Source: Verrucomicrobiota bacterium
GTDB taxonomy: Bacteria; Verrucomicrobiota; Verrucomicrobiia; Opitutales; Opitutaceae
Assembly: GCA_963205455.1 (NCBI GenBank)
Contig: CAUJJL010000045.1
Location: 1-64,000 of the forward strand
Direction of reading: 5' to 3'
DNA length: 64,000 nucleotides
A program made the position numbers and the translations under genes. Of this stretch, positions 231 to 37,441 are shown piece by piece (position 1 is the stretch's first letter; each line of letters opens with the position of its first letter). The notes beneath the pieces were generated by a model that saw nothing but the letters and a program-made list of their open reading frames with translations, searched no databases and was not told the DNA's origin.

Positions 231-2336
231 TCAGGCAGGAACTCCAGCCGCGGATGCAGGCTCGATCTGGCGGAGCTGCTTTCGCTTCAGTTCCCGGTAG
301 CAGTCGGGCAGATCGAATGATTTCAGCACTCCCGGCACCAGTGCGGCCCACGGCCAGTCATAGTCCCGGGTTTCCGCTACGTCAGCATAGCTGGTAAGCG
401 CGTGCTTCAGGGTCACCTGCACCACCCGATCATGCAGCACCGCTGCGAAGGTACCCGGAACTGCACCCCAACCGCGCGCCACAAGGTGGACTTCCTCGTG
501 ATCGAAGCCTCCCAACCAGTCCAGAACGCGCAGCAAGTCATGCGTGCGCTGACCGGCGGTGGGATAATCGAACAATACGCCGAAGCCTGCGTGCATGTTG
601 TCGACCCTGCTCTTCAGCGGATTGTCCGGGGTTGAGAGCCCCGGCTGCGATTCTCCCATACCTCTGAGGTCGCATGCGTAGAATGCGGCCTCTGGCTCTG
701 CATCGCACATCTGCTTCAGCCACGGATCGGTCCGCAGTTCGACGTCGGCTGATCGGTGCGAGACATACAGCACCGCGCGTCGAGGGCCACGGGGTGGCCG
801 GGATAGTAGCCGACCATCGCTGAGACGATAGACGAATACCTGAATATCCGGCTCCGTTTCCAAGAGGTATTCGCCATGGTTCTTCTTCGGGAAGCCTCGA
901 GAACTTGTCCCTGTCATGATCCGATACTCGGGCACACCTTCTCGTGCCGGAAGCTTCAACGTTGCAATGATCTTTTCGACCAATGCAGCGCCGGTCAACT
1001 GCGGTCGTGAGGCTCGCAGCTTCTTCGAGAGATCACGGCCATGCGAAAATTCGCTGGTCGACTGAATATCGGCCACCTGCCCGTGCGGCGTACACAGGAG
1101 ATCCTCCGGCTTCTCCCTTGTGATCTCAGGTTCTCCATTGTTTCCGGAAATCCCGGTCCAGCGATTGAACCAGGCATACATCGCTTCACGATTGGGTTTC
1201 GAAAAGCCATGGGAGCCCGTGCCGAGGATCGCGGCAAAATTCTGTTCAGCCCCCAGCAGTCGGTAGAGAGATCGGAGACGGGCGCTGGCCTCCTCGAATC
1301 CGCGGGCATCGAAAAAGTCGTTTTCTTGCCCGAAAAGCATCACGGGGCGCGGCGCCATCGCGGCGATGAAATCGGAATGGTCCAAACCTTGGGCGAGCAA
1401 GCCCCACGGCAGATTCTCCGGATCGAGAGGTCGCTCGTTTTCGACTATTCTTCGCAGCGAGGTCACATTGCAACTCGGTGCCGCCATCGTGAGCCGCTCA
1501 TCAAATCCGCAGAGCAGTTTCGTCTGGTTTCCACCCCCGGAACTGCCCGTGATCCCGAGATGCCTGGCATCCACCTCAGGTCGCTCGATGAGATAGTCCA
1601 GGGAACGGATGCAGTCCCACAGGAACCACGCGGGCAGGGTTTCACCCACCAAGGGCATGCGCACCCCGCTGTAAATGTGCTCGCCGGTGCCGCGACCATG
1701 CGCCGGCTGAAGGTCGGACCCAACATATTGGTAGCGCTCGCCCTGGCCGATGGGGTCGAAGGCCAGAGCCACATAGCCCTGCTTCACCATACCTTGGGCA
1801 AGTGTCTGGGAACCGAGCTTGCCCGAACCGAAATGCCCCACGGGAACGAGCACGCCGGGGAAGGGTCCGGGACGGCCGGTCGGAATGTGGAGATTGGCCG
1901 TCACGAGAAAGCCCGGTCGGCTTTCGTAAATGACGTTCTCGATCTGGTAGCCGTCGCGCCTGTGAGTGCCGGTGACGCGAGCCTTAAGCGGCGTCTTTCC
2001 CGGCATCGGTCCGAAACACCGGCGCAGGCGTTCACGCACATCTGCGACATAGCGTTCCGCATCCGCCTTTGTACGCAAGGCGCCGCGGCGCGCATCCCCC
2101 TCACGCATCACCTCGCGCACCCGCCGCACGTAGTATTCCTGGACGGAGCGCGGTGATCGATTGAGTGCGACCAAGGGCCCGGAGGATATGGCATCGGCGG
2201 GGCTTTCGTCGCCCTCCGCCTCCGCTGTTGGAGGCCGCTCGGCTCGGCCAGCAGCGGTTGCAATTGAGGGCAAGGTGGCACCGAAGAGCGCAAGTCCGCT
2301 CTGATGAATCATTCGACGACGAGTAACGTGAATCAT
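231..2336 (-). CDS. Exported alpha/beta hydrolase (acetylxylan-esterase-like), two hydrolase folds
   Basis: 701 residues from the ATG at 2336. The N-terminus TRRRMIHQSGLALFGA resembles a Tat signal. The first domain (about 110-400) is an alpha/beta hydrolase with nucleophile motif GSSGG (Ser266), a likely Asp in GQENDFFD and His in GTGSHGF; this type is common among bacterial carbohydrate esterases of the acetylxylan esterase group. A second hydrolase-like fold follows (about 500-690), but its elbow reads ARGWGA with Gly in place of Ser, so it is probably inactive. It lies downstream of the TonB receptor on the same strand with a 297-base gap. A role in removing ester groups from the imported glycan is inference. 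Confidence 0.75.
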   Translation of the reverse strand: MIHVTRRRMIHQSGLALFGATLPSIATAAGRAERPPTAEAEGDESPADAISSGPLVALNRSPRSVQEYYVRRVREVMREGDARRGALRTKADAERYVADVRERLRRCFGPMPGKTPLKARVTGTHRRDGYQIENVIYESRPGFLVTANLHIPTGRPGPFPGVLVPVGHFGSGKLGSQTLAQGMVKQGYVALAFDPIGQGERYQYVGSDLQPAHGRGTGEHIYSGVRMPLVGETLPAWFLWDCIRSLDYLIERPEVDARHLGITGSSGGGNQTKLLCGFDERLTMAAPSCNVTSLRRIVENERPLDPENLPWGLLAQGLDHSDFIAAMAPRPVMLFGQENDFFDARGFEEASARLRSLYRLLGAEQNFAAILGTGSHGFSKPNREAMYAWFNRWTGISGNNGEPEITREKPEDLLCTPHGQVADIQSTSEFSHGRDLSKKLRASRPQLTGAALVEKIIATLKLPAREGVPEYRIMTGTSSRGFPKKNHGEYLLETEPDIQVFVYRLSDGRLLSRPPRGPRRAVLYVSHRSADVELRTDPWLKQMCDAEPEAAFYACDLRGMGESQPGLSTPDNPLKSRVDNMHAGFGVLFDYPTAGQRTHDLLRVLDWLGGFDHEEVHLVARGWGAVPGTFAAVLHDRVVQVTLKHALTSYADVAETRDYDWPWAALVPGVLKSFDLPDCYRELKRKQLRQIEPASAAGVPA

Positions 2337-2633
2337 GACCGGCGGGGTGACTGAAATTTGAGCGCTCTCGCAAAAGTGTCAGGCGGTGTGCCTGAACTTG
2401 CGTTGCTTCGGCGAGCTTGTCCCGAAATAGGCACGGGACAAGCAATCCGTCAGACCAAAATCCTGTTGGACGCTATGCGTTGGGAAAACCTCCATCGCAT
2501 CTGGCCACAACTCCGTGAAGGGGCCACACCCCTGCGTGCACGAGGTGCTCACTAACACCATGCCCATTTCCAACGGGATCGCAGGCATCAGCACGAGGCA
2601 AACAGGCTCGGCACATCGGCGGAGGCCTATCGC
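2337..2633. other. Intergenic region between hydrolase and TonB receptor
   Basis: 297 bases between two minus-strand genes. Short open frames exist on both strands but none has a recognisable product or ribosome site. The only structure I see is a perfect 10-bp inverted repeat (2415-2443), listed separately. Confidence 0.5.
2415..2443. repeat. Perfect inverted repeat, 10-bp arms, 9-base loop
   Basis: GCTTGTCCCG at 2415-2424 and its exact complement CGGGACAAGC at 2434-2443, loop AAATAGGCA. It sits downstream of the TonB receptor stop and upstream of the hydrolase on the minus strand. No T-run follows on either strand, so it is not a textbook intrinsic terminator; an mRNA-stabilising hairpin, an attenuating element or a dispersed REP-like repeat are all possible. 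Confidence 0.55.
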
Positions 2634-5600
2634 TCAGAGATCGAAGGTCGTCGTGAAAATTATCGTCCGCGGCGGCACGATGCGGAAGGTGTGAGGTTCA
2701 CCGGTGGGATAAGCCCCAACGGGCTGGAGGCGGGCGTGCGATTCCTGGATGTTTCGCACATTCAACTGAAAACGGGCACGCACCTTGTCGCCGAAAAGTC
2801 GCGTCTGGTAGCTCGCAAAGGCATCGAAATACGCATGCGCCTTGTCCCAGATGGGACGGCTCGGATCGAGCTGCTCCGCTATCTCGATATTGCCGTCGAT
2901 CGGGATGCCATAGAATCCGATCGCACCTTTGCTTTCATAACGAACACCCCCGCCGACGGTCATGTTCTTCAGGAACCGGTTTTGGCTGATTCCGGCAAGT
3001 TTGTAGCTCGTGGCGAGATTGAAACGCCATTCACGCACCTGCGGACGCGAGGTACCCTGGGTCGCGCCTTCGATTCGAAGCGGGGTAATGACACTCGTGT
3101 TGATGAAGTCGCGAGGAGTGCGCGCGGCGGGATCCGGCAGGGTCCCCGTGTATCCGGTATCGAGCCATTTTGTTCCCGTGCGCGGATCAATGATGGTTTC
3201 CCAAACGGCCATGCGCTGCGTGAGCCACGTGGTCAGGTTAGGCGATTGCGGACCGTCAATGGACTCGCTGCGCGTCACATTGGCGCGCAGCGTCCAGTAG
3301 TTGGAGGGATTGAAGCTTAACTCATATTCCTCACCCTTGGCCAGAATGTCGGTTGAGTCCGCAAGGTTGTTGCTTTGCCAGGCGCTGAACACCTCCGGGG
3401 CAATCCCCTGGATGCGGTAGGCTTCGGCGTCGGCCTGGGCAGCCGTCATCGAAGGATTGCGCTGCAGAAGCCAGTTCGTCGCCTGGCTGTGCAGATTGAA
3501 GACGTAGTGATTGGGCGCGATGTCAAAATCGGCATCGATAAGGCGCTTGGCCAGATTGCTTGCCTGTCCTGCCCGGGAATTGAGCTGCAGCGTTGTATAG
3601 TGATTGGCACGCAGCATGAACTTGCTGCCGAAGCTGAGAATGATGCCATAATCCTTGCCGACGGAGCCTGGGTTGGGCAGCTCCTGAAGGAGGATGTTGA
3701 TTGCAGGATCCTCAGGTTTGAAGCTGTCGGCACGATTGTAGTAGAAACTCAGGCCTTGCAGGGCCGAGGCCATCCTGCCCGTCCAGCCCTCGCCGCGGCT
3801 GGCATCCTCAATGGCGCGCCACCCACGGAAGGGCCTAAGGACTGCCCCCTTGGTGGTCGTTTCGCCGCTGCGGATATCCCAGTCACCCCGCCAGCCGCGC
3901 ATGCTGTCAAAATCGAAGTCGATTCCGTTCGGCATGAGGGCGACCCGGTTCTGGCGCTTGAATCCCGTCTGATCGGATCGAAGACCGTAGGTGGTAACGA
4001 GCCGATTGTCGAAGAACGAACTTTGGATGATGAAGCCTTTCGTCTGCAGAAGATTCAGAAGCGAGTTGGCGTTTTCCCCTGCACTGGCCTCAGCGACGGC
4101 AGCCGTGCCGAAGGTGGCGACGTCGGTCACCCACTGCTTGGTCTGCGCATTGTACCAGGTGAAGTTATAGTTGCCGTCCTGTGCACGTGAGGGAGCGAAG
4201 TCGACATCCTGCCCGTTGGCATCGCCAAGATAATACTGAATGTACGGCCGGGTTGCGGTGGTCGATGCCACAAAGCCGTTGGTCGAGAGCTGATTTCCCT
4301 TCGGCTGGCCCGCGGGTGCATAGATCGGATTGTCCGAAATCAAGGCATCGCGGAAGTTATAGACATGATTCTTGGACTTGCGCTCCTCGTAATAGCCGAG
4401 GACCTGCTGCCTGCCCAGGAGCCTCCACCAAAACGACTTCTCCCGCGTGAGATCCAGCACATAAGCGAGCTGGGCGCGGTAGCTGTCCCTCTCATAGGGA
4501 GACTCCGTCCAGACGCGCTCGGCCGCTCCGATGTAGGGCTTGAGAAAAAACGGGTTTGCGCTGCCATCAAGCAGGCGGGAATTGGGGTTTACGTAAATGT
4601 ATCCCGAGGTGCCGACGCCGGCAACGCTGCCCACCGTGTTCCGGCGGCGACGGTCGGCATCTTCACGCTGCCATGCGAGTTGAACAGCCACCGTGTTGCG
4701 GTCGGTGTTGAGAATGTACTGCTCGAATTCGACTGTTGAGGTGTCGACCTCTTCACGCTGGTAGTTTGGCGCGGCGAGATTGACATGAGCGTAGTCGTAA
4801 ATGTCGGGGTCTGAAATCGCACGAATCGTGGTAAAGAGCGGCCGCCCGTCGCGGATGGGCTCGGGAACGCTTTCGAGCAGGCGGTTGATTCCGGCGACGT
4901 TGGCTGCGCCGTTGGTAGCCGTGGCTGCGGGCATGCGGCCTATCTCCCAAAGCTGAACTCCCCCCTGATCGACATACATCACGGGGCCGTTACGATTCAG
5001 GTTGGCCAGTCCAACGGGATTTGTCGTTCCCGTATATGCCTTCGAAACGCCGTTGACCGTCGCGATCTGTGTTACGGGATCCCAGGTGGGACTGCCGAGC
5101 GACTTCCAGTAGGATATGCCGTCGCGCGGCGTCATGGTGTTGGCACGGGTGCCGTCGGAAAAATAGGACTGAAATGACGCCCTCAGCGTCGTGTACTTGA
5201 ATGGCTGAAGACGGATCATGGCATTCAGCCGACGGGTATTCATGCCGGAAGGCTTTTGCACGTCCTCATCATGCTGATAGACGCCGCTTACGCGGGCGGC
5301 GAGTTTGCCCTTTATCAGAGGCCGGTTCAGGTCGAAAGACGTACGCCAACCGTCATTGTTGTCGAAACGCACCTGGGTGGTGGTGATCGCCCGGTTGAGA
5401 TTGGCCGAAGCGGCAACCATGTTTACGGTGCCCGAACCTTCACCGAGTCCGAAGAGATTGGAGTTGGGACCGCGGCTGATCTCGATCGCGTCGATGTCAA
5501 TGGGATCCACCGGCACACGGCCGCTGGTTGCGAAACCTGAACGCGACACGTTGGCGGAGCCTATGCCGCGAAGCCGGTTGGACGACTGACGGTCTGTCAT

Positions 5601-6107
5601 GACCTTGTCCGTGATGTAGCCTTTGCGGTTGACCTCGAAGTCCGTATAGGTGTCCGCACTTTCCGCGCCCGCCTCGTAGGCAAAGACATCGTTGATGTCG
5701 AGCATGGCAAAATCCATCATCTGCTGCTTTGTCACAACCGAGATCGACGAACCCAGGTCCTCAAGCTTGGTATTGAGCCGCGTGCCCGACATCGTGTTGG
5801 TCGCGAGGTAGCCGGTGTTGCTTTCAGTGACCTCAAAGGGGGAAAGGGTTACGGTGCCTGAACCGGCGGTGTCCTCCGCCCCTGAGGATCCCTTGGACTC
5901 ATTCGCGCGCGCCGCTGCCTCATCCTTCGCATCGATGCGCCCATCATTGTTCAGGTCATAGCTCTTCGGATCAGCGGCATCGCGTTCCGCGGGTTTCACC
6001 TGCGCCTTGATGACGCCCGGTGTCAGGGCCACCAGAATAAGGAAGCACATCAGTGCACTACAGAAGCGAAACGGTACGTGATCGCAGTGTGTTGGGGAGG
6101 AATGCAT
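2634..6107 (-). CDS. TonB-dependent outer-membrane receptor with N-terminal dockerin-like Ca loop
   Basis: 1157 residues if started at the ATG at 6107; an upstream frame reaches 6203 but the signal sequence (CSALMCFLILVALTPGVIKAQ) begins after 6107, which supports the shorter start. Between signal peptide and plug there is a DxNxDGxIDxxD loop (residues 51-62), which looks like one dockerin/EF-hand calcium site. The plug begins with LSPFEVTESNTGY and GTRLNTKLEDLGSSISVVT, the Opitutaceae-type lead-in, and contains the EISRGPNSNLFG segment; a 22-strand-type barrel follows and ends in the aromatic-rich IIFTTTFDL. No carboxypeptidase-like domain is present. It should import an oligosaccharide across the outer membrane. 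The LacI gene lies upstream and a shared 22-bp element at 6225-6246 probably controls it. Confidence 0.93.
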   Translation of the reverse strand: MHSSPTHCDHVPFRFCSALMCFLILVALTPGVIKAQVKPAERDAADPKSYDLNNDGRIDAKDEAAARANESKGSSGAEDTAGSGTVTLSPFEVTESNTGYLATNTMSGTRLNTKLEDLGSSISVVTKQQMMDFAMLDINDVFAYEAGAESADTYTDFEVNRKGYITDKVMTDRQSSNRLRGIGSANVSRSGFATSGRVPVDPIDIDAIEISRGPNSNLFGLGEGSGTVNMVAASANLNRAITTTQVRFDNNDGWRTSFDLNRPLIKGKLAARVSGVYQHDEDVQKPSGMNTRRLNAMIRLQPFKYTTLRASFQSYFSDGTRANTMTPRDGISYWKSLGSPTWDPVTQIATVNGVSKAYTGTTNPVGLANLNRNGPVMYVDQGGVQLWEIGRMPAATATNGAANVAGINRLLESVPEPIRDGRPLFTTIRAISDPDIYDYAHVNLAAPNYQREEVDTSTVEFEQYILNTDRNTVAVQLAWQREDADRRRRNTVGSVAGVGTSGYIYVNPNSRLLDGSANPFFLKPYIGAAERVWTESPYERDSYRAQLAYVLDLTREKSFWWRLLGRQQVLGYYEERKSKNHVYNFRDALISDNPIYAPAGQPKGNQLSTNGFVASTTATRPYIQYYLGDANGQDVDFAPSRAQDGNYNFTWYNAQTKQWVTDVATFGTAAVAEASAGENANSLLNLLQTKGFIIQSSFFDNRLVTTYGLRSDQTGFKRQNRVALMPNGIDFDFDSMRGWRGDWDIRSGETTTKGAVLRPFRGWRAIEDASRGEGWTGRMASALQGLSFYYNRADSFKPEDPAINILLQELPNPGSVGKDYGIILSFGSKFMLRANHYTTLQLNSRAGQASNLAKRLIDADFDIAPNHYVFNLHSQATNWLLQRNPSMTAAQADAEAYRIQGIAPEVFSAWQSNNLADSTDILAKGEEYELSFNPSNYWTLRANVTRSESIDGPQSPNLTTWLTQRMAVWETIIDPRTGTKWLDTGYTGTLPDPAARTPRDFINTSVITPLRIEGATQGTSRPQVREWRFNLATSYKLAGISQNRFLKNMTVGGGVRYESKGAIGFYGIPIDGNIEIAEQLDPSRPIWDKAHAYFDAFASYQTRLFGDKVRARFQLNVRNIQESHARLQPVGAYPTGEPHTFRIVPPRTIIFTTTFDL
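5919..5957 (-). other. Dockerin/EF-hand-like calcium loop inside the TonB receptor
   Basis: Residues 51-63 of the receptor read DLNNDGRIDAKDE. Asp1, Asn3, Asp5, Gly6, Ile8, Asp9 and Asp12 fit the dockerin-type loop. Only one loop is present, whereas true dockerins have two. It is placed directly after the signal peptide, on the periplasmic side of the plug. Confidence 0.6.
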
Positions 6108-6224
6108 GGGTGAGGTCGGTTGAGGGGGGGGCCTGTGACTGCGCAGCCTCCGACCACCTGGCAGGGATGGGCAGGGCGGTGCGAAAGGGAGCCAAGCCGC
6201 CAACCCGGGCCGAATGCAACCCGT

Positions 6225-6246
6225 CGCTTACTTTTGTCGTATTAGT
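6225..6246 (-). promoter_or_regulatory. 22-bp element upstream of TonB receptor (copy 1, probable LacI operator)
   Basis: Read toward the receptor (minus strand) the element is ACTAATACGACAAAAGTAAG plus CG. It matches the element at 7406-7427 at 20 of 22 positions, in the same orientation relative to the transport gene it precedes. It overlaps the stop codon of the LacI gene and lies about 120 bases upstream of the receptor start. It is only partly palindromic (TACT...AGTA arms), so the binding protein is inferred from position. Confidence 0.6.
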
Positions 6247-7297
6247 AGACGTGAGCCTCCTGTGAGGGCAGTGAGCGGACCGAGTCCCCGTCGATCCACT
6301 CGCCACGAATGACACTCAACACGGGACGCGAAGGTATGCCTCGCTCACCCCGTGAAAGCTGTCCAACAACCCCGTCGACGGCCGCCGATCCGACGTGATG
6401 CCAGTCCTCATCAATGCAGGCGCACCCTTCATCAGGCAGCAAGGCCGCAAGGCACGCGATCCCAATGTCCTCCGGGGCGGACATGCCCAGATCCCGGAGC
6501 CATTGTCGAATCGGATAGGCCCCTCCGCACAGCACCGCATCCGGTCGGTAGGAACGCAGCCACCGACCAAGTGCTGTCTTGGCACCGGCAGCAGGCAGAC
6601 TGGCAATCGCCTTTGGCGCAATCCTGCCTTTCTCAAATCCAAATGCACAAAATGCAGCGAGCCAACTGCGATGCACGCGCAGGTTGAGCTGCTCATCCAG
6701 CACGATGCCGATCCGCTGGTATCCGCGGGCGCGCAATTGCTCCAGCGCGATCAACACGGAATCGAAATGAGCCGTCACAACACGATGCAGGAGCGGGGAT
6801 TCCAGCGTGTAACCAATCGCGACAGTGGCAAACTTCTCCCAGGGGAGTGACAACGAGGAGCCGCTTGAAAGGGGAAACACGATCACCCCTTCGATGCCTC
6901 GCGCCTGAAGGACTTTGGAAACGCGGGCGGCACTCATCCCATTGCGCCCCATTCCAAACTCCTCGAGCGCGTAGCCCAGTTCTTTCGCGCGCTGGCGCGC
7001 ACCCTCCCATTGGAGGCGCCAGGTGGGATACCTCCGGTATTCAGAGAGTTCGGGCCAATCCGTCACCGCGGCCAGGGTGGGTCTGTACTTTCTTGGGCGC
7101 TTCGAACGAATCTGGGCCATGAGGGATGAAATGCCCGCATGAGGCTGATAGCCCAGTTTCCGCGCGACAGCGCGGATGCGCTCACGAGTCGCACGCGGGA
7201 TGCTCGGATCATTGCGCAGAGCCAGAGAGACCGCGGTCTGACTGACTCCCGCGGCCTTGCCGACGTCTGACATGGTTACGAGGACAACCTTCCCCAT
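6242..7297 (-). CDS. LacI/GalR-family transcriptional regulator
   Basis: 351 residues from the ATG at 7297; the frame extends to a TTG at 7333, and an ATG at 7273 is also possible. The N-terminal helix-turn-helix is clear (VTMSDVGKAAGVSQTAVSLA, then the hinge-type RERIRAVARKLGYQPHAG). The rest is a periplasmic-binding-protein-like sensor (LQARGIEGVIVFPL, RGYQRIGIVLD, DIGIACLA). It lies between the TonB receptor it probably controls (downstream, same strand) and the divergent MFS transporter. Near-identical 22-bp elements flank the gene, which suggests control of both transport genes and of itself. The ligand is unknown, probably a sugar or sugar derivative. Confidence 0.93.
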   Translation of the reverse strand: MGKVVLVTMSDVGKAAGVSQTAVSLALRNDPSIPRATRERIRAVARKLGYQPHAGISSLMAQIRSKRPRKYRPTLAAVTDWPELSEYRRYPTWRLQWEGARQRAKELGYALEEFGMGRNGMSAARVSKVLQARGIEGVIVFPLSSGSSLSLPWEKFATVAIGYTLESPLLHRVVTAHFDSVLIALEQLRARGYQRIGIVLDEQLNLRVHRSWLAAFCAFGFEKGRIAPKAIASLPAAGAKTALGRWLRSYRPDAVLCGGAYPIRQWLRDLGMSAPEDIGIACLAALLPDEGCACIDEDWHHVGSAAVDGVVGQLSRGERGIPSRPVLSVIRGEWIDGDSVRSLPSQEAHVY

Positions 7298-7644
7298 TCG
7301 CCGAAGAAGACGTCGAACCTGAACGGAATTCAACGAGGAAAATCCGGACTCCGGCGCGCGACCAGATTCTGCTGAGCCGGATAAATCGACACACGATCCG
7401 ACTCCACTAATACGAGAAAAGTAAACGTCGCATTGTGTCGGCTCGACTCAGCGGGCTGGCTGGCATCCGCAACGCCCCCGGTTTTGCGGTCCCCATTGCA
7501 CCAAGCCCGCAGACAACTGATGTCGACCCTTGATCCTCCTACGATTCATCACCCCTGAAATTCAAGCCGCGGCAGCATGCCCTGTCCTCGTTGATTGCAA
7601 ACGTCCCAAGCAATAGAAGATTGGCCCGTGCAACTCCCGCTGCA
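7298..7644. other. Divergent promoter region, LacI / MFS transporter
   Basis: 347 bases between the LacI start and the transporter start. It contains the 22-bp element at 7406-7427. No other gene is visible, and I could not place confident -35/-10 boxes. Confidence 0.5.
7406..7427 (+). promoter_or_regulatory. 22-bp element between LacI and MFS genes (copy 2, probable LacI operator)
   Basis: ACTAATACGAGAAAAGTAAA followed by CG; 20 of 22 bases equal the copy at 6225-6246 read on the minus strand. It lies about 110 bases upstream of the LacI start and about 218 bases upstream of the MFS start, so it could serve both divergent promoters. Confidence 0.6.
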
Positions 7645-9000
7645 ATGACCTCGACCGCACAAACCCCCTCTTCCAGGAGATTCACCCGAACCGTCTACTT
7701 TTTCGGCGCGTTGGGCGAACTGATGTTTGGCTACGATGTGGGCGTCATAGGCGTGGCATTGCTCTTCATTTCTCCGGAAATGCACCTGACACCCTTCAGC
7801 CAGGGGCTGGTGGTCAGCGCACTCCTGGCTGGTGCCGCCGTCGGAGTGGGTTGCTCGGGTGTCCTGTCGGATCGATTCGGTCGAAGGCCGCTGCTTCTCG
7901 CCATGGCAGTTCTGTTTGTCGTCGGTGGAATTGGAGGAGGCCTTGCCCCGTCAACGCTCTGGCTGATCGTGGCCCGTGGGGTTATGGGCATGGGCGTTGG
8001 GGCATCCGCCGTGGTTGTGATGGTATATTTGGCCGAACTCGCACCCACCGAACATCGGGGACGCATTGCCGCCCTCGGCCAGTTCATGCTCGTCTGCGGC
8101 ATCCTGCTGTCCTACATCGTTGCCTATCTGCTGCAACCGTGGGAGGCGTGGCGCTGGATGATCGGCATCAGTGCCGTCCCCTCGCTGATCCTGTTTGTCG
8201 GTCTACTGGCAATGCCGGAATCTCCGCGCTGGCTCGTCCAGGCAGGCCGTCCCTCGGAAGCTCGCGCGGTCCTGCAGCGCATCGGACAGGGCGCCCGTGC
8301 CGATGCCGAAATCGCGGCCATCCAGGAATCAATCCTATCGAGCCAGGTCGCAGCAATGGGCATGGGGCGCATTCTATCGGCGCCCGGGCTCCGACGTGCC
8401 CTCGTGGCGTGCTGCGGACTGGCCATCCTGGTCCAGCTCCTTGGTGTCAACACGATCATCTATTACGCACCGACCGTGCTCATCAACGTGGGCTTCGCCC
8501 AGAAGGGCGCGGTGGTCGCAAATCTGGGCATTGGCGCGACGAATGTGGCCATGACGGTTCTTGCGCTTTCATTGCTCGATCGCATCGGACGGCGGCGGCT
8601 TCTGCTGATCGGCTCGGTGCTGATGACGCTGGCGATGGTCTTCCTGGGCGGAGTCGGATCGGCGCAGGCGCCCAACGGCTGGCTCATGCTGGCCGGAATG
8701 CTGACATTCCTTGCCGCATTCGCGATGAGCTGGGGCGCATGCGTGCGCGTCGTCATCTCGGAGTTGCTGCCGCAGCAGGTCCGTGGCGCCATCATGGGCT
8801 ATGTGCTGGTCCTCAATTGGGCCGCGAATTTCAGCGTCGGACTTCTGTTTCCCGTGCTCGTGGCCCGACTGGGCGCCGGTCTCACCTTCCTCGCGTTCGC
8901 CGCGATGGGGGCCGTGTCCCTGGTGTTTGTATTCCGATTCGTGCCTGAAACCAAAGGCCAGACGCTCGAGGAAATTCAGGCATCGCTCCAGCGAGGCTGA
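7645..9000 (+). CDS. MFS transporter, sugar porter family
   Basis: 451 residues from ATG 7645 (the open frame starts at a TTG at 7591). Twelve hydrophobic segments are visible. Sugar-porter signatures are present: GYDVGVIGVAL in TM1, SDRFGRRPLLL between TM2 and TM3, the PESPRWL motif before the central loop, DRIGRRRLLL in the second half, and the C-terminal PETKGQTLEEIQ. It should move a monosaccharide or small sugar across the inner membrane. It stands alone with the following sulfatase (9 bases apart), divergent from LacI, and probably takes up the sugar released from what the TonB receptor imports. Confidence 0.93.
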   Translation: MTSTAQTPSSRRFTRTVYFFGALGELMFGYDVGVIGVALLFISPEMHLTPFSQGLVVSALLAGAAVGVGCSGVLSDRFGRRPLLLAMAVLFVVGGIGGGLAPSTLWLIVARGVMGMGVGASAVVVMVYLAELAPTEHRGRIAALGQFMLVCGILLSYIVAYLLQPWEAWRWMIGISAVPSLILFVGLLAMPESPRWLVQAGRPSEARAVLQRIGQGARADAEIAAIQESILSSQVAAMGMGRILSAPGLRRALVACCGLAILVQLLGVNTIIYYAPTVLINVGFAQKGAVVANLGIGATNVAMTVLALSLLDRIGRRRLLLIGSVLMTLAMVFLGGVGSAQAPNGWLMLAGMLTFLAAFAMSWGACVRVVISELLPQQVRGAIMGYVLVLNWAANFSVGLLFPVLVARLGAGLTFLAFAAMGAVSLVFVFRFVPETKGQTLEEIQASLQRG

Positions 9001-9009
9001 GAACACATC

Positions 9010-10359
9010 ATGGTTGCATCCCCTTCCCGCCCTCCACCCAACATCGTCGTGCTCATCGCCGACGATCTGAGCAGGTTCTCGCTGGGATGTTATGGCGATC
9101 CACACGTGCGCACGCCGGCAATCGATCGCCTCGCTGCTGAAGGCATTCGATTCCAGCGCGCCTATGCCACGGCGCCGCAATGCAGCCCCAGCCGCTCCTC
9201 GCTCTTCACCGGCCGCACGCCTCATGCCACAGGCACCTCGCGCCTGCACGCACCCTTGCCGCGGGAGGTGCCGACAATCCTGGAGCCAATTCGGGAGCGC
9301 GGCTACTTCACGGGCGTTTTCAGAAAGCATCATCTCGGCAACGATTTTGCGCGGAGATTCGATCTGGTCGGCGGCAACGACATGCCAACCGCGGAGTTCT
9401 TTCGCCAGGCGCCACCCGACCGCCCGTTTTTCCTCTGGGTCGGATTCAATGATCCCCACCGGGATCTCTATACCAACTACGACCACATCCGCGGAGAGGT
9501 GATCCCGCCCCACGATCCGGCGAAGGTAACCGTGCCGCCCTTTCTGCCGGACACACCCGCCGTTCGTGCCGATCTTGCGCTGCACTACGATGCCATTCAT
9601 CGCCTCGATAGGGACTGCAACGAAGTGTTGCAGCAACTTGATGCCTCAGGTCGGGCGCGAGACACCATAGTGATTTTCCTGAGCGATCACGGCATGCCAT
9701 ATCCGCGGGCCAAAGCCACGCTCTATGAAGCCGGTATCAACGTCCCGCTCATCGTCCGCTGGCCAGGGAAAATCGCCCCTGGGATTGAGACATCGGAGCT
9801 CGTGTCATCGGTCGATCTGCCAGCCACGTGGCTCGATTTGGCGGACCAGCCCCCGCTGCCATCCATGGAAGGCCGCAGCCTGGTGTCACTGCTTACCGGC
9901 CGACCTCATCCGTCGCGCCAGTACGTTTACGCCGAGCGGAACTGGCACGACACATGGGAACCGACCCGAGCGATTGTCTCGAAACAGTATGCGTTGATCT
10001 GCAACTGCCGCCCCGAAGTCTCCTACCGCGGTTCGCTTGACCATGTCTCCGCCCCGGTCTGGAACATTCTTGAGGCCGAGCAGGCGGCAGGCCGACTTCC
10101 GCCCGCGCTCGCGGAGATGTTCCACTCACCGCGCCCTCCCATCGAACTCTACGACCTGGTTCGCGATCCCCACGAACTCATCAATCTCGCGAACGATCCC
10201 GCCCATGCCTCCATCGGCGATTCGCTTCTCCTTGAGCTGGATCGCTGGATGCGGGCGACGAACGACTTCCTGCCCCCACCCGCCTCCTTCCCTGAGATCA
10301 GGCAGGAGGGAAAACTCACAATGACCCGGATGCTCGACGGCCCATTGCCCAAACGGTAG
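9010..10359 (+). CDS. Type I sulfatase without signal peptide
   Basis: 449 residues, ATG 9010, 9 bases after the transporter. NIVVLIADDLSRFSLGCYGD provides the N-terminal metal Asp pair; the formylglycine motif is CSPSR (Cys58); a second metal motif is SDHGMPYPRAKATLYEAG, and the C-terminus has IELYDLVRDPHELINLAND. The N-terminus (MVASPSRPPPN) has no signal peptide, so the enzyme appears cytoplasmic, which fits its pairing with a sugar transporter. The architecture recalls sulfamidase-like (N-sulfoglucosamine sulfohydrolase) members, but that substrate is only a suggestion. It needs Cys-to-formylglycine maturation by an enzyme not present in this window. Confidence 0.9.
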   Translation: MVASPSRPPPNIVVLIADDLSRFSLGCYGDPHVRTPAIDRLAAEGIRFQRAYATAPQCSPSRSSLFTGRTPHATGTSRLHAPLPREVPTILEPIRERGYFTGVFRKHHLGNDFARRFDLVGGNDMPTAEFFRQAPPDRPFFLWVGFNDPHRDLYTNYDHIRGEVIPPHDPAKVTVPPFLPDTPAVRADLALHYDAIHRLDRDCNEVLQQLDASGRARDTIVIFLSDHGMPYPRAKATLYEAGINVPLIVRWPGKIAPGIETSELVSSVDLPATWLDLADQPPLPSMEGRSLVSLLTGRPHPSRQYVYAERNWHDTWEPTRAIVSKQYALICNCRPEVSYRGSLDHVSAPVWNILEAEQAAGRLPPALAEMFHSPRPPIELYDLVRDPHELINLANDPAHASIGDSLLLELDRWMRATNDFLPPPASFPEIRQEGKLTMTRMLDGPLPKR

Positions 10360-11897: not shown

Positions 11898-14417
11898 TCA
11901 ATTCTCTCCGGGATCGCCGCTCATGTTCCGGGGAATCCCGTGTTCGAAATCCACGCGGAAAATTTCACGGCCCGAGAAATCGTTGAGCACGGCGCGACCC
12001 TCCGCACGCTGATCGCGCCACTCCGAGCGTGTGCGCACCTTCCCGTTGGGCCAGAAGTTTGTCCATATGACCAGGGCATCGGAACGGTGGATGCGCTCCC
12101 ATTCGAGGTGTCCATCGGCGGCAAAATACTTTTCCCGACCAGTGAGGCGACCCAAGCTGTAGCTCGCGGAACGCTGCAAGCTCCCGTCCGGATAGAACCA
12201 CCGTTGTTCCCCATCAAAAAGAAAGCGTCCGTCGTTCGCCATGCCTCCCGAATAGATCATTCGCACCCTTCCGGTGGCGTCCTTTTCCTCGTAGGTTCCA
12301 ACGTGCGAAACCCGCGTTGCGGTGTTCGCTCGCAATGAGGCGTCGTCCACCATGATGCGATCTCCCGAAAGGATCCATGCCTCGTTCAATTCAAAATGCA
12401 GGCAGGGTTCGGTCATCGTAGCGATGAGATGAATCACCCCGTTGGGCGCCTGCCGTGCGACAGCATAGCCGAGCGTGTCGCCGTTCATCTGGGCAGAGCG
12501 ATCCGCACGTTCATGCCGCTGCGTTCCCAAGAGCGGACGCTCGAGCCATGTTTCACCGTCGTCGTCGGATAGCGCCACGTAGCATCCACGCCGGTCAATT
12601 CCGACGGGCTGTGCACCTTTCTCGCTCTGGTAGTCGCCCGCCATGAACAACCGGCCGCTCGCGAGACGGATGCACGTTGGCCTCTGGTTGCTGCCCAGAT
12701 GTGCAAACGGAGTTTTCGTGACGGTGTACGTCCGGCCTCCGTCGGTGGAGATTGATTTCGGCATGAAGCCCTCGATGTTTGAGCTCTTGCCGCCCATCCC
12801 CATGATCGTCATGCCATCGCGTTTCAGGACAAATGCGGTGTGCCGCCCGCCGCTGCGGCCACCCGGATCGCGCCAGGTGGATCCATTGTCATCACTCTGC
12901 CAGAGCACAGACTCCGGTCCGACTGCATCGCTCGCCACATAGATACGGCCTCGTGGGTCGCGAAACGCACTCGTAATCGGCTGGGCGGAATGGGGGCCAA
13001 CCGGTGTCGTGAAATTCGGAAACTTGATCCTGCTCCAGGTCGCACCGTTGTCGTCTGAATTGATCCACTGGAAGGGAAATCCGGAATCGAGCCTGTTCGT
13101 TCCCCAAAAGAACCATAGCGTTCCGTTGTCGTTCCACAGCATCGGCGCATGATCGTCGACGTCAGGCAAATCCAGAAACAGATCGGGCGGGTCCCACTCG
13201 TCAGCGCCGTGACGCAATCGGGTGATCAGGAGTGCGACGTCCGGATCGAGTTCACCCACTGCGGTGAACGAGATAAAAATCACGTCGCCGTTGTTCGCCA
13301 CCTCCAGCCCCGGGCTGTGCTGATGCCTGAGAAACCCACGCGGCCAGCCGAGCGCGCGATATGACTTCAGCCGCGCTGGATCGGTGTTTTCCGGAGGCGT
13401 GGGCAGGAGGTAGCGTTTCCGAAAATACGGTTTCGTCGCATCCGGCCCGGCCAGGATCCCAGGTGCGGATTGTGACACGCCTTGCTGCGCGTAGGCGATC
13501 CGCGCGACGATCGGGCGCGCGCTCGGATTCGCGGCGCAGACCACACGGAAGCCGATGTGATGGTTGCCCTGATTGTTCAGGACTGAGCGGGTGAATCCCA
13601 GATACAACACCTCACTCTTGTAAGAGCCGCTTCGCTGCTGTCCCTCCCCTCGCGCCTCGCTCGCGCCACCAGAAATTCGTTTCTCCGCATGCCCGCTCGG
13701 CGCATGACCTGTTGGTGGAAAGTTCGGCGGCATCCCGGCCCGATTGGAAGGACGGACATAGTAGGCGGTTTCCTTGTCGAGTCCACCACCTCGAATGACC
13801 TTGGCCCAGCCGTCCGCAGGGCCAATTGGATCGACTTGGGGCGCAGCCGGATACTCGCCATGCCAGTCAAGACACCACTCCGCTACAGCCGCCTCCATGT
13901 TCTTGACGCCCCAAGCGTTGGGTACGCCGGACGCGGCGGGTTCGTCACCTCCGGCAAACAGCGTCGTGCTGCCCGCCCGCGCAACATACTCCCATTCCGC
14001 TTCGGTCGGAAGGCGGTAGGTCCTGCCTTCCTTTTTGCTCAGCCAGTCGCAGAACGCCATCGCCTCGTCCCAACTGACTCCGCTGACATAGGGCGCCGTA
14101 GAGGGATTGCCGACAAAGTTCGGGTGAAACTGACGGAATTGCTCCACGGTCACCTCCGTTTCGCTCATCGCGAAACCCCGCGTCAATGTCACGGCATGCA
14201 CCGGCCGCTCGTCCCAATCCCCACGCAACAAATAGGCCGGGGTCTCAAAACGAGAAGGCAGCGTATCGGCTGATGCCCCCATAAAAAACGTCCCCGCGCG
14301 AATTCCTATCAGCCGCATTCCAATCGAATTCGTCTCAGGGACCTCGCCGACGGAAGTCAGCGCGAAAAAGACAAGAGATCCCGCCAACCCAATCAGCTTC
14401 CTTTTTGCAGGGGGCAT
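11898..14417 (-). CDS. Exported fusion: FGE-like (SUMF1-type) domain + sialidase-like propeller + tail repeats
   Basis: 839 residues from ATG 14417 (a GTG at 14426 is upstream). Signal peptide KLIGLAGSLVFFALTSVG. Residues about 25-305 form a formylglycine-generating-enzyme superfamily domain: GMRLIGIRAGTFFMGA, TEVTVEQFRQF, SWDEAMAFCDWLSKKEGRTY, RLPTEAEWEYVARAG and GFRVVCA. The segment that carries the two catalytic cysteines in true FGE reads VIRGGGLDKETAYYVRPSNR here and has none, so sulfatase activation is unlikely. Residues about 320-720 look like a BNR/sialidase propeller (SDDNGATWSRI, SDDNGSTWRD, STDGGRTY, SDDDGETWLE Asp-box motifs). The last 100 residues carry MORN-like repeats (WFYPDGSLQ, YFAADGHLEWE, NFWPNGKVRT). 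It is the first gene of an operon with a secreted sulfatase. A sialic-acid substrate should not be assumed. Confidence 0.85.
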   Translation of the reverse strand: MPPAKRKLIGLAGSLVFFALTSVGEVPETNSIGMRLIGIRAGTFFMGASADTLPSRFETPAYLLRGDWDERPVHAVTLTRGFAMSETEVTVEQFRQFHPNFVGNPSTAPYVSGVSWDEAMAFCDWLSKKEGRTYRLPTEAEWEYVARAGSTTLFAGGDEPAASGVPNAWGVKNMEAAVAEWCLDWHGEYPAAPQVDPIGPADGWAKVIRGGGLDKETAYYVRPSNRAGMPPNFPPTGHAPSGHAEKRISGGASEARGEGQQRSGSYKSEVLYLGFTRSVLNNQGNHHIGFRVVCAANPSARPIVARIAYAQQGVSQSAPGILAGPDATKPYFRKRYLLPTPPENTDPARLKSYRALGWPRGFLRHQHSPGLEVANNGDVIFISFTAVGELDPDVALLITRLRHGADEWDPPDLFLDLPDVDDHAPMLWNDNGTLWFFWGTNRLDSGFPFQWINSDDNGATWSRIKFPNFTTPVGPHSAQPITSAFRDPRGRIYVASDAVGPESVLWQSDDNGSTWRDPGGRSGGRHTAFVLKRDGMTIMGMGGKSSNIEGFMPKSISTDGGRTYTVTKTPFAHLGSNQRPTCIRLASGRLFMAGDYQSEKGAQPVGIDRRGCYVALSDDDGETWLERPLLGTQRHERADRSAQMNGDTLGYAVARQAPNGVIHLIATMTEPCLHFELNEAWILSGDRIMVDDASLRANTATRVSHVGTYEEKDATGRVRMIYSGGMANDGRFLFDGEQRWFYPDGSLQRSASYSLGRLTGREKYFAADGHLEWERIHRSDALVIWTNFWPNGKVRTRSEWRDQRAEGRAVLNDFSGREIFRVDFEHGIPRNMSGDPGEN

Positions 14418-14455
14418 GGACCACACCGTGACCTGATGCCAGGCGTTTATCTAGC

Positions 14456-14463
14456 ATGAAATA
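14456..14463. promoter_or_regulatory. ATGAAATA half-site upstream of the FGE-like fusion
   Basis: One of three ATGAAATA/TATTTCAT copies in this 188-base divergent promoter region. It lies 39 bases upstream of the fusion gene start. Role inferred from repetition only. Confidence 0.35.
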
Positions 14464-14530
14464 AGAGAAAATAAGCGCCATAATACCTCATATCCTGGCA
14501 AGAATCAGATAAAAACCTCAATCCACGGAA

Positions 14531-14543
14531 CCCTTACTAAGGG
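14531..14543. promoter_or_regulatory. Odd palindrome CCCTTA-C-TAAGGG
   Basis: Perfect 6-bp arms around one base, in the centre of the divergent promoter region between the FGE-like fusion and the LacI gene. It is a candidate protein-binding site. Confidence 0.4.
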
Positions 14544-14563
14544 TATGTGCGCGACGACTTGGC

Positions 14564-14579
14564 CATTGTTATAACAATG
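14564..14579. promoter_or_regulatory. Perfect 16-bp palindrome, probable operator
   Basis: CATTGTTATAACAATG is fully self-complementary. It lies 27 bases before the LacI ATG and overlaps a plausible promoter (TTGTTA at 14567 and TATGCT at 14591, 18 apart). Size and place fit an operator for the divergently placed LacI-family protein, that is autoregulation, but binding is not shown. Most LacI operators have a central CG; this one has TA. Confidence 0.6.
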
Positions 14580-14607
14580 AAATACACTTTTATGCTATCT
14601 ATTTCAT
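14577..14607. promoter_or_regulatory. ATGAAATA - 15 bases - TATTTCAT inverted pair
   Basis: ATGAAATA at 14577-14584 and TATTTCAT at 14600-14607, the latter overlapping the first possible ATG of the LacI gene. The same two half-sites occur as a tighter inverted repeat at 30592-30614, before the second TonB receptor. Confidence 0.4.
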
Positions 14608-15769
14608 GTTTTTTCTTGCACCAACAATTTTCATCCGCCACAGCCAGAGCGTGAACCGCTCCTCCCCGGCCGCCCTGGAAAAACCCACCATTCTCGACGT
14701 CGCTGCCGTCGCCAAGGTCGCCGTGGGCACCGTTTCCAGAGTGATCAATACTCCCGATGCCGTCGGTCCCGGCATTCGCCAGCGTGTGCTCGAGGCGATC
14801 GCCAGCACGAATTACAAACCGCTTCGGCGTCGGCGCAAAGCGAACCCAATCGACGGCGGTGCACCGCGCCGCAATCGCGGCAACTTCGGCGTTCTCCTCA
14901 TAGGCATGGACGACTCCCTTGCCCACCTGCCTGTCATCGCCGAGGCCCTCCACGGCGTGGAACTCGCGATGGCCGTCGAGGGGATGAACCTCATGCTCGC
15001 CAACGTACCAAACGCTGACCGCATCCCGGCTTTTCTCGCAAAGAACCAGGTGGACGGACTCATCCTCAAGAGCCCGCTGCTCGGAGATCTCAGCACCTGC
15101 GCCAGCCCCGCACTTGTCGACGCCATCAGGCGCCTGCCACATGTCTGGCTGCTCGGCAAACCTGAGTCGGCCGACGGTGACATGTGCGGCACCGACGCCG
15201 ACACCGGCGCGCGCATCGCGGCAGAATACCTGCGAGCGCGTGGTCACAGGAACATCAGCTACCTGCATCCACGCCCGGGCCAGACCCGCGCCGAGGGGCT
15301 CAAGCGCTCCATCTCGCTGCATCTGCAACGACTCGGCATGCAACTGACATTCCTCGAGAATCCCACCGTCGAGAACGTTCGCTGGCCCTTGCCCGCAATC
15401 ACACATCCCAGGGATATCGCCCCGCTGCTCGAGCGATGGGAATCAATGCCAGCCGCCGAGCGCCCGACCGCGCTTGTTGTCAGCGCAGACAGCATCGCCG
15501 TCCAGCTCTACCACGCGTTGCACGAAAAGGGACTCCGCGTCGGACGCGATGTCAGCCTGCTTTCATTCAACCATGAGCGACCGCTGGTGATGGGACTCAC
15601 CCCGGCACTCACCACGATCGATATCCGCGCGGAAGCGATCGGTCGGCGCGCAGTCGAACAACTGCTGTGGCGCATCAGGAACCGCACCGAGAACACTCCG
15701 ACCAAGATCCTCGTGGAGCCACGCCTCGTCGAGGGCGATTCTGTCGCAACGCTTGCACCATCCGTCTGA
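14606..15769 (+). CDS. LacI/GalR-family transcriptional regulator
   Basis: 387 residues from ATG 14606; the family usually has only about ten residues before the helix-turn-helix, so the in-frame GTG at 14651 (373 residues) may be the real start, and a dyad overlapping 14606 supports that. The HTH reads PTILDVAAVAKVAVGTVSRV, followed by the hinge RQRVLEAIASTNYKPLRRRR. The sensor half has GTDADTGARIAAEYLRARGH and ISYLHPRPGQTRAEG, and ends near TTIDIRAEAIGRRAVEQL. It is first in the long plus-strand run of catabolic genes and is likely their regulator. The effector is unknown. Confidence 0.92.
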   Translation: MFFLAPTIFIRHSQSVNRSSPAALEKPTILDVAAVAKVAVGTVSRVINTPDAVGPGIRQRVLEAIASTNYKPLRRRRKANPIDGGAPRRNRGNFGVLLIGMDDSLAHLPVIAEALHGVELAMAVEGMNLMLANVPNADRIPAFLAKNQVDGLILKSPLLGDLSTCASPALVDAIRRLPHVWLLGKPESADGDMCGTDADTGARIAAEYLRARGHRNISYLHPRPGQTRAEGLKRSISLHLQRLGMQLTFLENPTVENVRWPLPAITHPRDIAPLLERWESMPAAERPTALVVSADSIAVQLYHALHEKGLRVGRDVSLLSFNHERPLVMGLTPALTTIDIRAEAIGRRAVEQLLWRIRNRTENTPTKILVEPRLVEGDSVATLAPSV

Positions 15770-37409: not shown

Positions 37410-37441
37410 AGCAGACTAATACGCCATTGGCGGACAAATGC

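What the first reader, a model, noticed from the sequence alone, without database searches (positions are those of the whole stretch)
6225..7427. Near-identical 22-bp elements before the TonB receptor and the MFS transporter
ACTAATACGA[C/G]AAAAGTAA[G/A]CG occurs at 6225-6246 (minus) and 7406-7427 (plus), 20 of 22 identical, in the same orientation relative to the receptor and the transporter, with the LacI gene between. Such a match is very unlikely by chance in about 1.2 kb and defines a probable operator and regulon. The element is only weakly palindromic, which is uncommon for LacI-family operators.
Basis: partly seen in the sequence, partly recalled or inferred. Interest (0 to 1): 0.6.

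Follow-up and report, generated by a model that had tools for sequence, protein, structure and literature searches.

The report
Paired LacI operators flanking regulator gene
Two matching short DNA sites on either side of a sugar-regulator gene are very probably that regulator's own docking sites, one in front of an outer-membrane receptor gene and one in front of an inner-membrane transporter gene; this is a common kind of switch, except that in a related bacterium the regulator gene lies the other way round between the two sites.

Summary
The two 22-mers (20 of 22 identical) are the only matches within 3 mismatches in the window and in the 4.56-Mb genome. The similarity extends to 33 nt and ends in a TTG at a fixed distance. 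Comparative data support the operator reading. Both sites are unchanged in a relative whose LacI is 91% identical, while nearby bases changed. A relative with 71% LacI identity also has one site before each target, although its lacI gene is inverted. A LacI ortholog in another genus, among different genes, has related sites beside it. Across seven sites the invariant bases form CTnnTnCGnnAnnAG with one exception, an odd 17-bp dyad with a central CG, then 10 nt and TTG. Odd operators occur in about 4% of LacI-family regulators (PMC4052901), so weak symmetry is no objection. I conclude that this is a two-site local LacI regulon, resembling the Xanthomonas sux locus. Repression versus activation is unresolved. 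The oddest point: the lacI stop codon lies inside whichever site follows the gene, suggesting lacI inverted by exchange between its own operators.

The parts
6230..6246 (-).
6217..6219 (-). TTG 10 nt after the 17-mer, fixed in all seven sites compared; candidate start of a -35 box
   Evidence: the -35 role is inference
7406..7422 (+).
7433..7435 (+). TTG 10 nt after the 17-mer; candidate start of a -35 box
   Evidence: the -35 role is inference
6242..7297 (-). LacI-family regulator, 351 aa from ATG 7297 (start chosen by comparison with relatives; TTG 7333 and ATG 7273 are alternatives)
   Evidence: Pfam LacI 6.7e-13 and Peripla_BP_3 3.3e-10 on the 363-aa form; MGK start shared by the G007 ortholog; translation
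2634..6107 (-). TonB-dependent receptor, 1157 aa, predicted target
   Evidence: Pfam Plug 3.4e-06; ATG 6107
7645..9000 (+). MFS sugar transporter, 451 aa, predicted target
   Evidence: Pfam Sugar_tr 1.1e-109 and TIGR00879 1.8e-104 above cut-off, scanned from TTG 7591; ATG 7645
9010..10359 (+). sulfatase starting 10 nt after the transporter stop, probably in the same operon
   Evidence: Pfam Sulfatase 6.4e-49; co-transcription is inference
231..2336 (-). esterase-like protein downstream of the receptor, possibly co-transcribed
   Evidence: only sub-threshold Pfam matches to glucuronyl esterase and Peptidase_S9; same neighbour in G007

Best explanation
The two elements are the operators of the LacI-family protein encoded between them. 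A LacI dimer binds a 17-bp pseudo-palindrome (RCTWWTWCG-nn-AHWAGY, odd-centred with an off-centre CG as in lacO1, recalled) just upstream of the receptor promoter and of the transporter promoter. A sugar or oligosaccharide taken up through the receptor and transporter changes the protein's grip, so outer- and inner-membrane uptake are switched together. The transporter-side site also lies in the lacI upstream region, so autoregulation is likely. Shown by calculation: uniqueness, conservation, one site per target in three genomes, and related sites at an unlinked LacI ortholog. Inferred: that LacI is the protein that binds, that binding depends on an effector, and the sign of control. By analogy with SuxR I lean to repression (about 60:40), because the fixed 10-nt gap to a conserved TTG would also suit an activator sitting just upstream of a -35 box.
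For: Only 2 copies in 4.56 Mb, flanking lacI. Both 22-mers are 22/22 in G169 (LacI 91%), including the two positions where the copies differ, while flanking bases changed. The module pattern with 0 mismatches occurs exactly twice in each of the 3 of 10 genus genomes that have the LacI ortholog and in none of the other 7. In G007 the lacI gene is inverted, yet one site still precedes the receptor and one the transporter. In another genus, with neither receptor nor transporter ortholog beside lacI in the stretch read, a symmetrised 17-mer matrix built from the first genus alone gives as top hits sites at L043:15089, L039:16257 and L039:12238 (0 of 200 first-order Markov shuffles each), which lie before a sulfatase gene and a TonB gene. 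These sites carry TTG at the predicted offset although the matrix held no TTG column. Of all axes tried, position 9 gives the most dyad pairs: 33 of 56 against a mean of 14. The protein has an intact LacI HTH domain.
Against: No binding data. The window copies have only 4 of 8 dyad pairs, and the G007 transporter copy 3 of 8. In the genus, the transporter ortholog occurs in the same 3 of 10 genomes as LacI, so co-occurrence alone cannot assign the element to LacI; only the other genus separates them. There the unsymmetrised matrix ranks a coding site first in L043 (13212) and L039:7762, of no clear gene, first in L039; the site after lacI is not significant (18.5% of shuffles); and the G040 copy of the TonB site has lost one T. 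The 17-mer consensus used was fitted to sites already seen. More distant homologs (40-46%; four stretches) show no significant site. No sigma-70-like promoter is found in the region.
Confidence: 0.85

Rival explanations
1. The elements are bound by some other protein, or are part of a special promoter (another regulator or a sigma factor), and lacI sits between them by chance.
For: A TTG at a fixed distance points to promoter architecture. In the genus the element co-occurs with the transporter as well as with LacI. The window copies are weakly symmetric.
Against: Only two copies per genome, both beside lacI, does not fit a general promoter or global regulator. Related sites recur beside a LacI ortholog in another genus with different neighbours. 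The conserved bases are symmetric with a CG at the centre, the LacI-family pattern (PMC4052901 passages).
Confidence: 0.1
2. The elements are recombination sites: inverted repeats that flip the lacI segment, with regulation secondary.
For: They are inverted relative to each other and flank lacI, and lacI has opposite orientation in G007. The lacI stop codon lies at the same place inside the element on the other side, and the lacI upstream regions match only in the orientation expected from a flip (0 of 1000 shuffles).
Against: In the other genus the best related sites (L039 11047, 12238, 16257) all point the same way and do not flank lacI as an inverted pair. Conservation extends to TTG, which fits promoters. 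No recombinase turned up among the ORFs assigned, although not every ORF was scanned. One flip between species needs no dedicated machinery.
Confidence: 0.04
3. Terminal inverted repeats of a small mobile unit carrying lacI.
For: A 33-nt inverted repeat at 82% flanks a single gene.
Against: No further copies in the genome within 3 mismatches, no transposase-sized gene other than lacI between the repeats, and the element does not travel as a flanking pair with the ortholog in the other genus.
Confidence: 0.01

Closest known systems
sux locus of Xanthomonas campestris pv. campestris (SuxR, SuxC, SuxA, SuxB; PMC1790865, passages read)
   Same: A LacI/GalR-family regulator gene next to genes for an MFS inner-membrane transporter and a TonB-dependent receptor; SuxR represses suxA, suxB, suxC and itself.
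   Different: Here there are sulfatase and esterase-like genes instead of amylosucrase, a different phylum, and a regulator of unknown sign and effector whose gene orientation differs between relatives.
Odd-length LacI-family operators such as those of LacR, GalR and EbgR (PMC4052901, passages read; lacO1 from recall)
   Same: Odd palindrome (17, 19 or 21 nt, about 4% of 1303 regulators) and a CG at the core.
   Different: The conserved symmetric part is short (CTnnTnCGnnAnnAG) and is followed at a constant 10 nt by TTG.
LacI-family sites used for activation, such as Cra/FruR on gluconeogenic genes (PMC4052901 passages) and CcpA upstream of ackA (recalled)
   Same: An operator just upstream of a presumed -35 box could serve activation.
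   Different: No evidence on the sign of control here.

Membership tests
LacI/GalR transcription factor family | N-terminal LacI helix-turn-helix | tested here: met
   PF00356, E 6.7e-13, 48.7 bits against a cut-off of 27
LacI/GalR transcription factor family | C-terminal periplasmic-binding-protein-like effector domain | tested here: met
   PF13377, E 3.3e-10, 40.7 bits against a cut-off of 26.5
LacI-family operator | Palindrome shared by the sites of one regulator | tested here: met
   Best dyad axis at position 9 over seven sites, 33 of 56 pairs against a mean of 14.25; single window copies only 4 of 8
LacI-family operator | Even length with CG at the exact centre (the usual form) | tested here: not met
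   The axis falls on a base (17 bp, odd) with C8G9 invariant; the odd form is a known minority of about 4% (PMC4052901 passages)
LacI-family operator | Bound by the cognate LacI protein | not testable with these tools
   Needs a gel shift or footprint
sux-like carbohydrate utilization locus | TonB receptor, inner-membrane transporter and regulator gene together | tested here: met
   Gene order in the window and in G007
sux-like carbohydrate utilization locus | Regulator represses and the transported sugar induces | not testable with these tools
   Needs expression data
Invertible DNA (phase-variable segment) | Both orientations within one population | not testable with these tools
   Only assemblies are available; orientation differs between species
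Invertible DNA (phase-variable segment) | Dedicated recombinase next to the segment | tested here: inconclusive
   None among the annotated neighbours, but not every ORF was scanned

The most novel reading that the evidence does not exclude
The regulator's two operators also serve as crossover points. The segment between them, lacI plus its upstream region, has been inverted in place, so the gene ends inside the receptor-side operator in one lineage and inside the transporter-side operator in another, while both targets keep an operator. If this recurs or is reversible, it would be a switch that changes which target receives read-through from lacI without losing control of either.
Probability: 0.15. 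Interest if true: 0.6.

Novelty: new member of a known kind. Interest (0 to 1): 0.35.

Why it matters
It gives a testable operator for a LacI regulator in the Opitutaceae, for which my searches of the held open-access library listed no described LacI operator (listings only). The same motif can be used to search for targets in relatives. The inverted regulator gene shows how a paired-operator layout lets a regulator turn round without breaking control of its two targets.

Tried and rejected
A third site in the window, 2415-2431 minus, found by a 17-mer scan with one mismatch before the esterase gene, was dropped because it overlaps a perfect 10-bp hairpin (GCTTGTCCCG / CGGGACAAGC with a 9-nt loop; my reading). 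The site 37415-37431 (one mismatch) was not followed further.

Pattern hits with 3 mismatches in G038 and G046 lie among genes unrelated to this locus and were taken as chance. The 3-mismatch hits in four other genus genomes (G082, G123, G155, G183) were taken as noise.

The site just after lacI in the other genus (L043:9883, L039:11047) was kept as possible only: it overlaps the T run of a terminator-like hairpin (my reading) and is not significant alone. L039:7762 scores well (0 of 200 with the plain matrix, 2% with the symmetrised one), but I could not link it to a gene start. Distant LacI homologs (L040, L045, L046, L047) gave no significant sites.

RNA element: no Rfam match up to E 0.1 in 5900-7700. 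Sigma-70 consensus promoter: none in 6000-7700. Comparison of leader sequences between species gave only scattered similarity: receptor leader of the window against transporter leader of G007 reached by 0.2% of shuffles, other leader pairs weaker, 18 comparisons in all.

The first genome-contig scan found nothing; the second, with an alignment, found three loci. A literature search for mapped promoters in Verrucomicrobia gave nothing of use (listing). A search for regulator-gene inversion between operators listed 4 papers, none of them on that by title and abstract start (listing).

Full report
Observation. They are the only matches within 3 mismatches in the window and in the whole genome of 4,562,407 bases. 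The inverted repeat is in fact 33 nt long (6217-6249 and 7403-7435, 82%) and ends with TTG in both copies.

Surroundings. The genes are a TonB-dependent receptor (2634-6107, minus), a LacI-family regulator (6242-7297, minus), an MFS sugar transporter (7645-9000, plus) and a sulfatase 10 nt further on (9010-10359). Downstream of the receptor is an esterase-like gene (231-2336). The wider window is rich in sulfatases and sugar-acid enzymes (the functions of those ORFs beyond searches are my reading of the translations). The lacI start at ATG 7297 is chosen because a relative begins in the same way, MGK.

Relatives. All 252 genomes of the family available here were searched with the LacI protein: 6 of 252 match at E <= 1e-78. 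Three of these besides the window's own are close orthologs: G169 (91%), G007 (71%) and G040 (63%). A further record, L039, is 97.5% identical in DNA to the G040 locus over 12 kb. In G169 both 22-mers are identical to those of the window, each keeping its own variant bases, while the surrounding intergenic DNA has substitutions and small gaps. In G007 one site lies between lacI and the transporter (3 mismatches) and a more diverged copy, GCTTATACGATACAAGC, lies before the receptor.

Uniqueness. The module pattern STWATACGANAMAAGYAA-N8-TTG gives exactly two 0-mismatch hits in each of G000, G169 and G007, and none in the other 7 of 10 genus genomes. The pattern was built from these sites, so the informative part is that no others appear. 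The genomes without it also lack the LacI ortholog and the transporter ortholog, so within the genus the element cannot be assigned to one or the other.

Separation from the targets. G040 and L039 have the LacI ortholog among different genes: an aldose-epimerase-like gene, TonB receptors, a carboxylesterase and a sulfatase. A 17-mer matrix built only from the first genus and made symmetric gives as its best hits there L043:15089 and L039:16257 (score 23.1) and L039:12238 (18.5), each reached by 0 of 200 shuffles. They lie before the sulfatase gene and before a TonB gene. Against this, the unsymmetrised matrix puts other sites first (a coding site at L043:13212; L039:7762, of no clear gene), the G040 copy of the TonB site lacks one T, and the site after lacI is not significant alone. 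With the fitted consensus RCTWWTWCGNNAHWAGY, 0-mismatch hits are 2 in G000, 2 in G169, 1 in G007 and 2 in G040, all in the LacI loci; three control genomes without the ortholog give 0, 1 and 0.

Shape. Over seven sites (two from the window, two from G007, three from L039) the invariant columns are T3, T6, C8, G9, A12, A15, G16 and the TTG at 28-30; C2 holds in six of seven. These bases are symmetric about position 9. Among all axes tested this one has the most complementary pairs, 33 of 56 against a mean of 14.25. Three of the seven sites were picked with a symmetrised matrix or a palindromic pattern; the four genus sites on their own also have their best axis at position 9, but with 17 of 32 pairs against 16 for the next axis, so the symmetry is weak there. 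Single sites vary from 3 to 6 of 8. Odd palindromes are reported for about 4% of 1303 LacI-family regulators, and most LacI-family sites have a central CG pair (PMC4052901, passages).

Promoter link. TTG follows the 17-mer after exactly 10 nt in all seven sites, and two of the three L039 sites stand out with a matrix that had no TTG column. If TTG starts a -35 box, the operator centre lies near -55. No consensus sigma-70 promoter is detected, and the -10 regions are weak by eye. A fixed spacing suits an activator; blocking of the promoter by a repressor is equally possible. I lean to repression only because SuxR, in the similar Xanthomonas locus, is a repressor (PMC1790865, passages).

Inversion of lacI. 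In the window and G169, lacI runs toward the receptor; in G007 it runs toward the transporter. In each case the lacI stop codon TAA occupies positions 3-5 of the element that follows the gene: the receptor-side one in the window, the transporter-side one in G007. The lacI upstream regions of window and G007 are similar in the matching orientation (0 of 1000 shuffles; reverse 38%) although they border different targets. The simplest account is an inversion with both breakpoints in or next to the two operators. Whether it is a single evolutionary event or a recurring switch cannot be told from assemblies. No dedicated recombinase was noticed, but not every ORF was scanned.

Verdict. This is very probably the operator pair of a local LacI regulon of two transcription units: ordinary in kind, well supported by comparison, with an uncommon odd-length operator and an unusual inversion of the regulator gene between its operators.

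Noticed in passing
L050:713-6110 (G007:C1, about 526.7-532.1 kb): G007 has a second receptor 82% identical in DNA over 3.2 kb, with an added STN domain (just under its cut-off), beside an ECF sigma factor gene and a FecR gene instead of a LacI operator: the same receptor type under two different control systems.
   Followed up: partly
L042:1-1953 and 12744-14696: In G007 the esterase gene is duplicated at 99% DNA identity on both sides of the LacI locus, a recent duplication, while the two receptors are only 82% identical.
   Followed up: partly
window 2415-2443, minus strand: Perfect 10-bp hairpin GCTTGTCCCG/CGGGACAAGC between the receptor gene and the esterase gene, possibly a terminator or processing site.
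   Followed up: no
L043:9830-9890 and L039:10990-11060: Terminator-like hairpin after lacI whose stem differs between the two close relatives but is re-formed with a shifted pairing, followed by a T run that is part of the candidate operator (my reading).
   Followed up: no
window 14606-15769, plus strand: A second LacI-family gene (Pfam LacI 8.5e-12) with a TVSR-type recognition helix; no copy of the 22-mer is near it.
   Followed up: no
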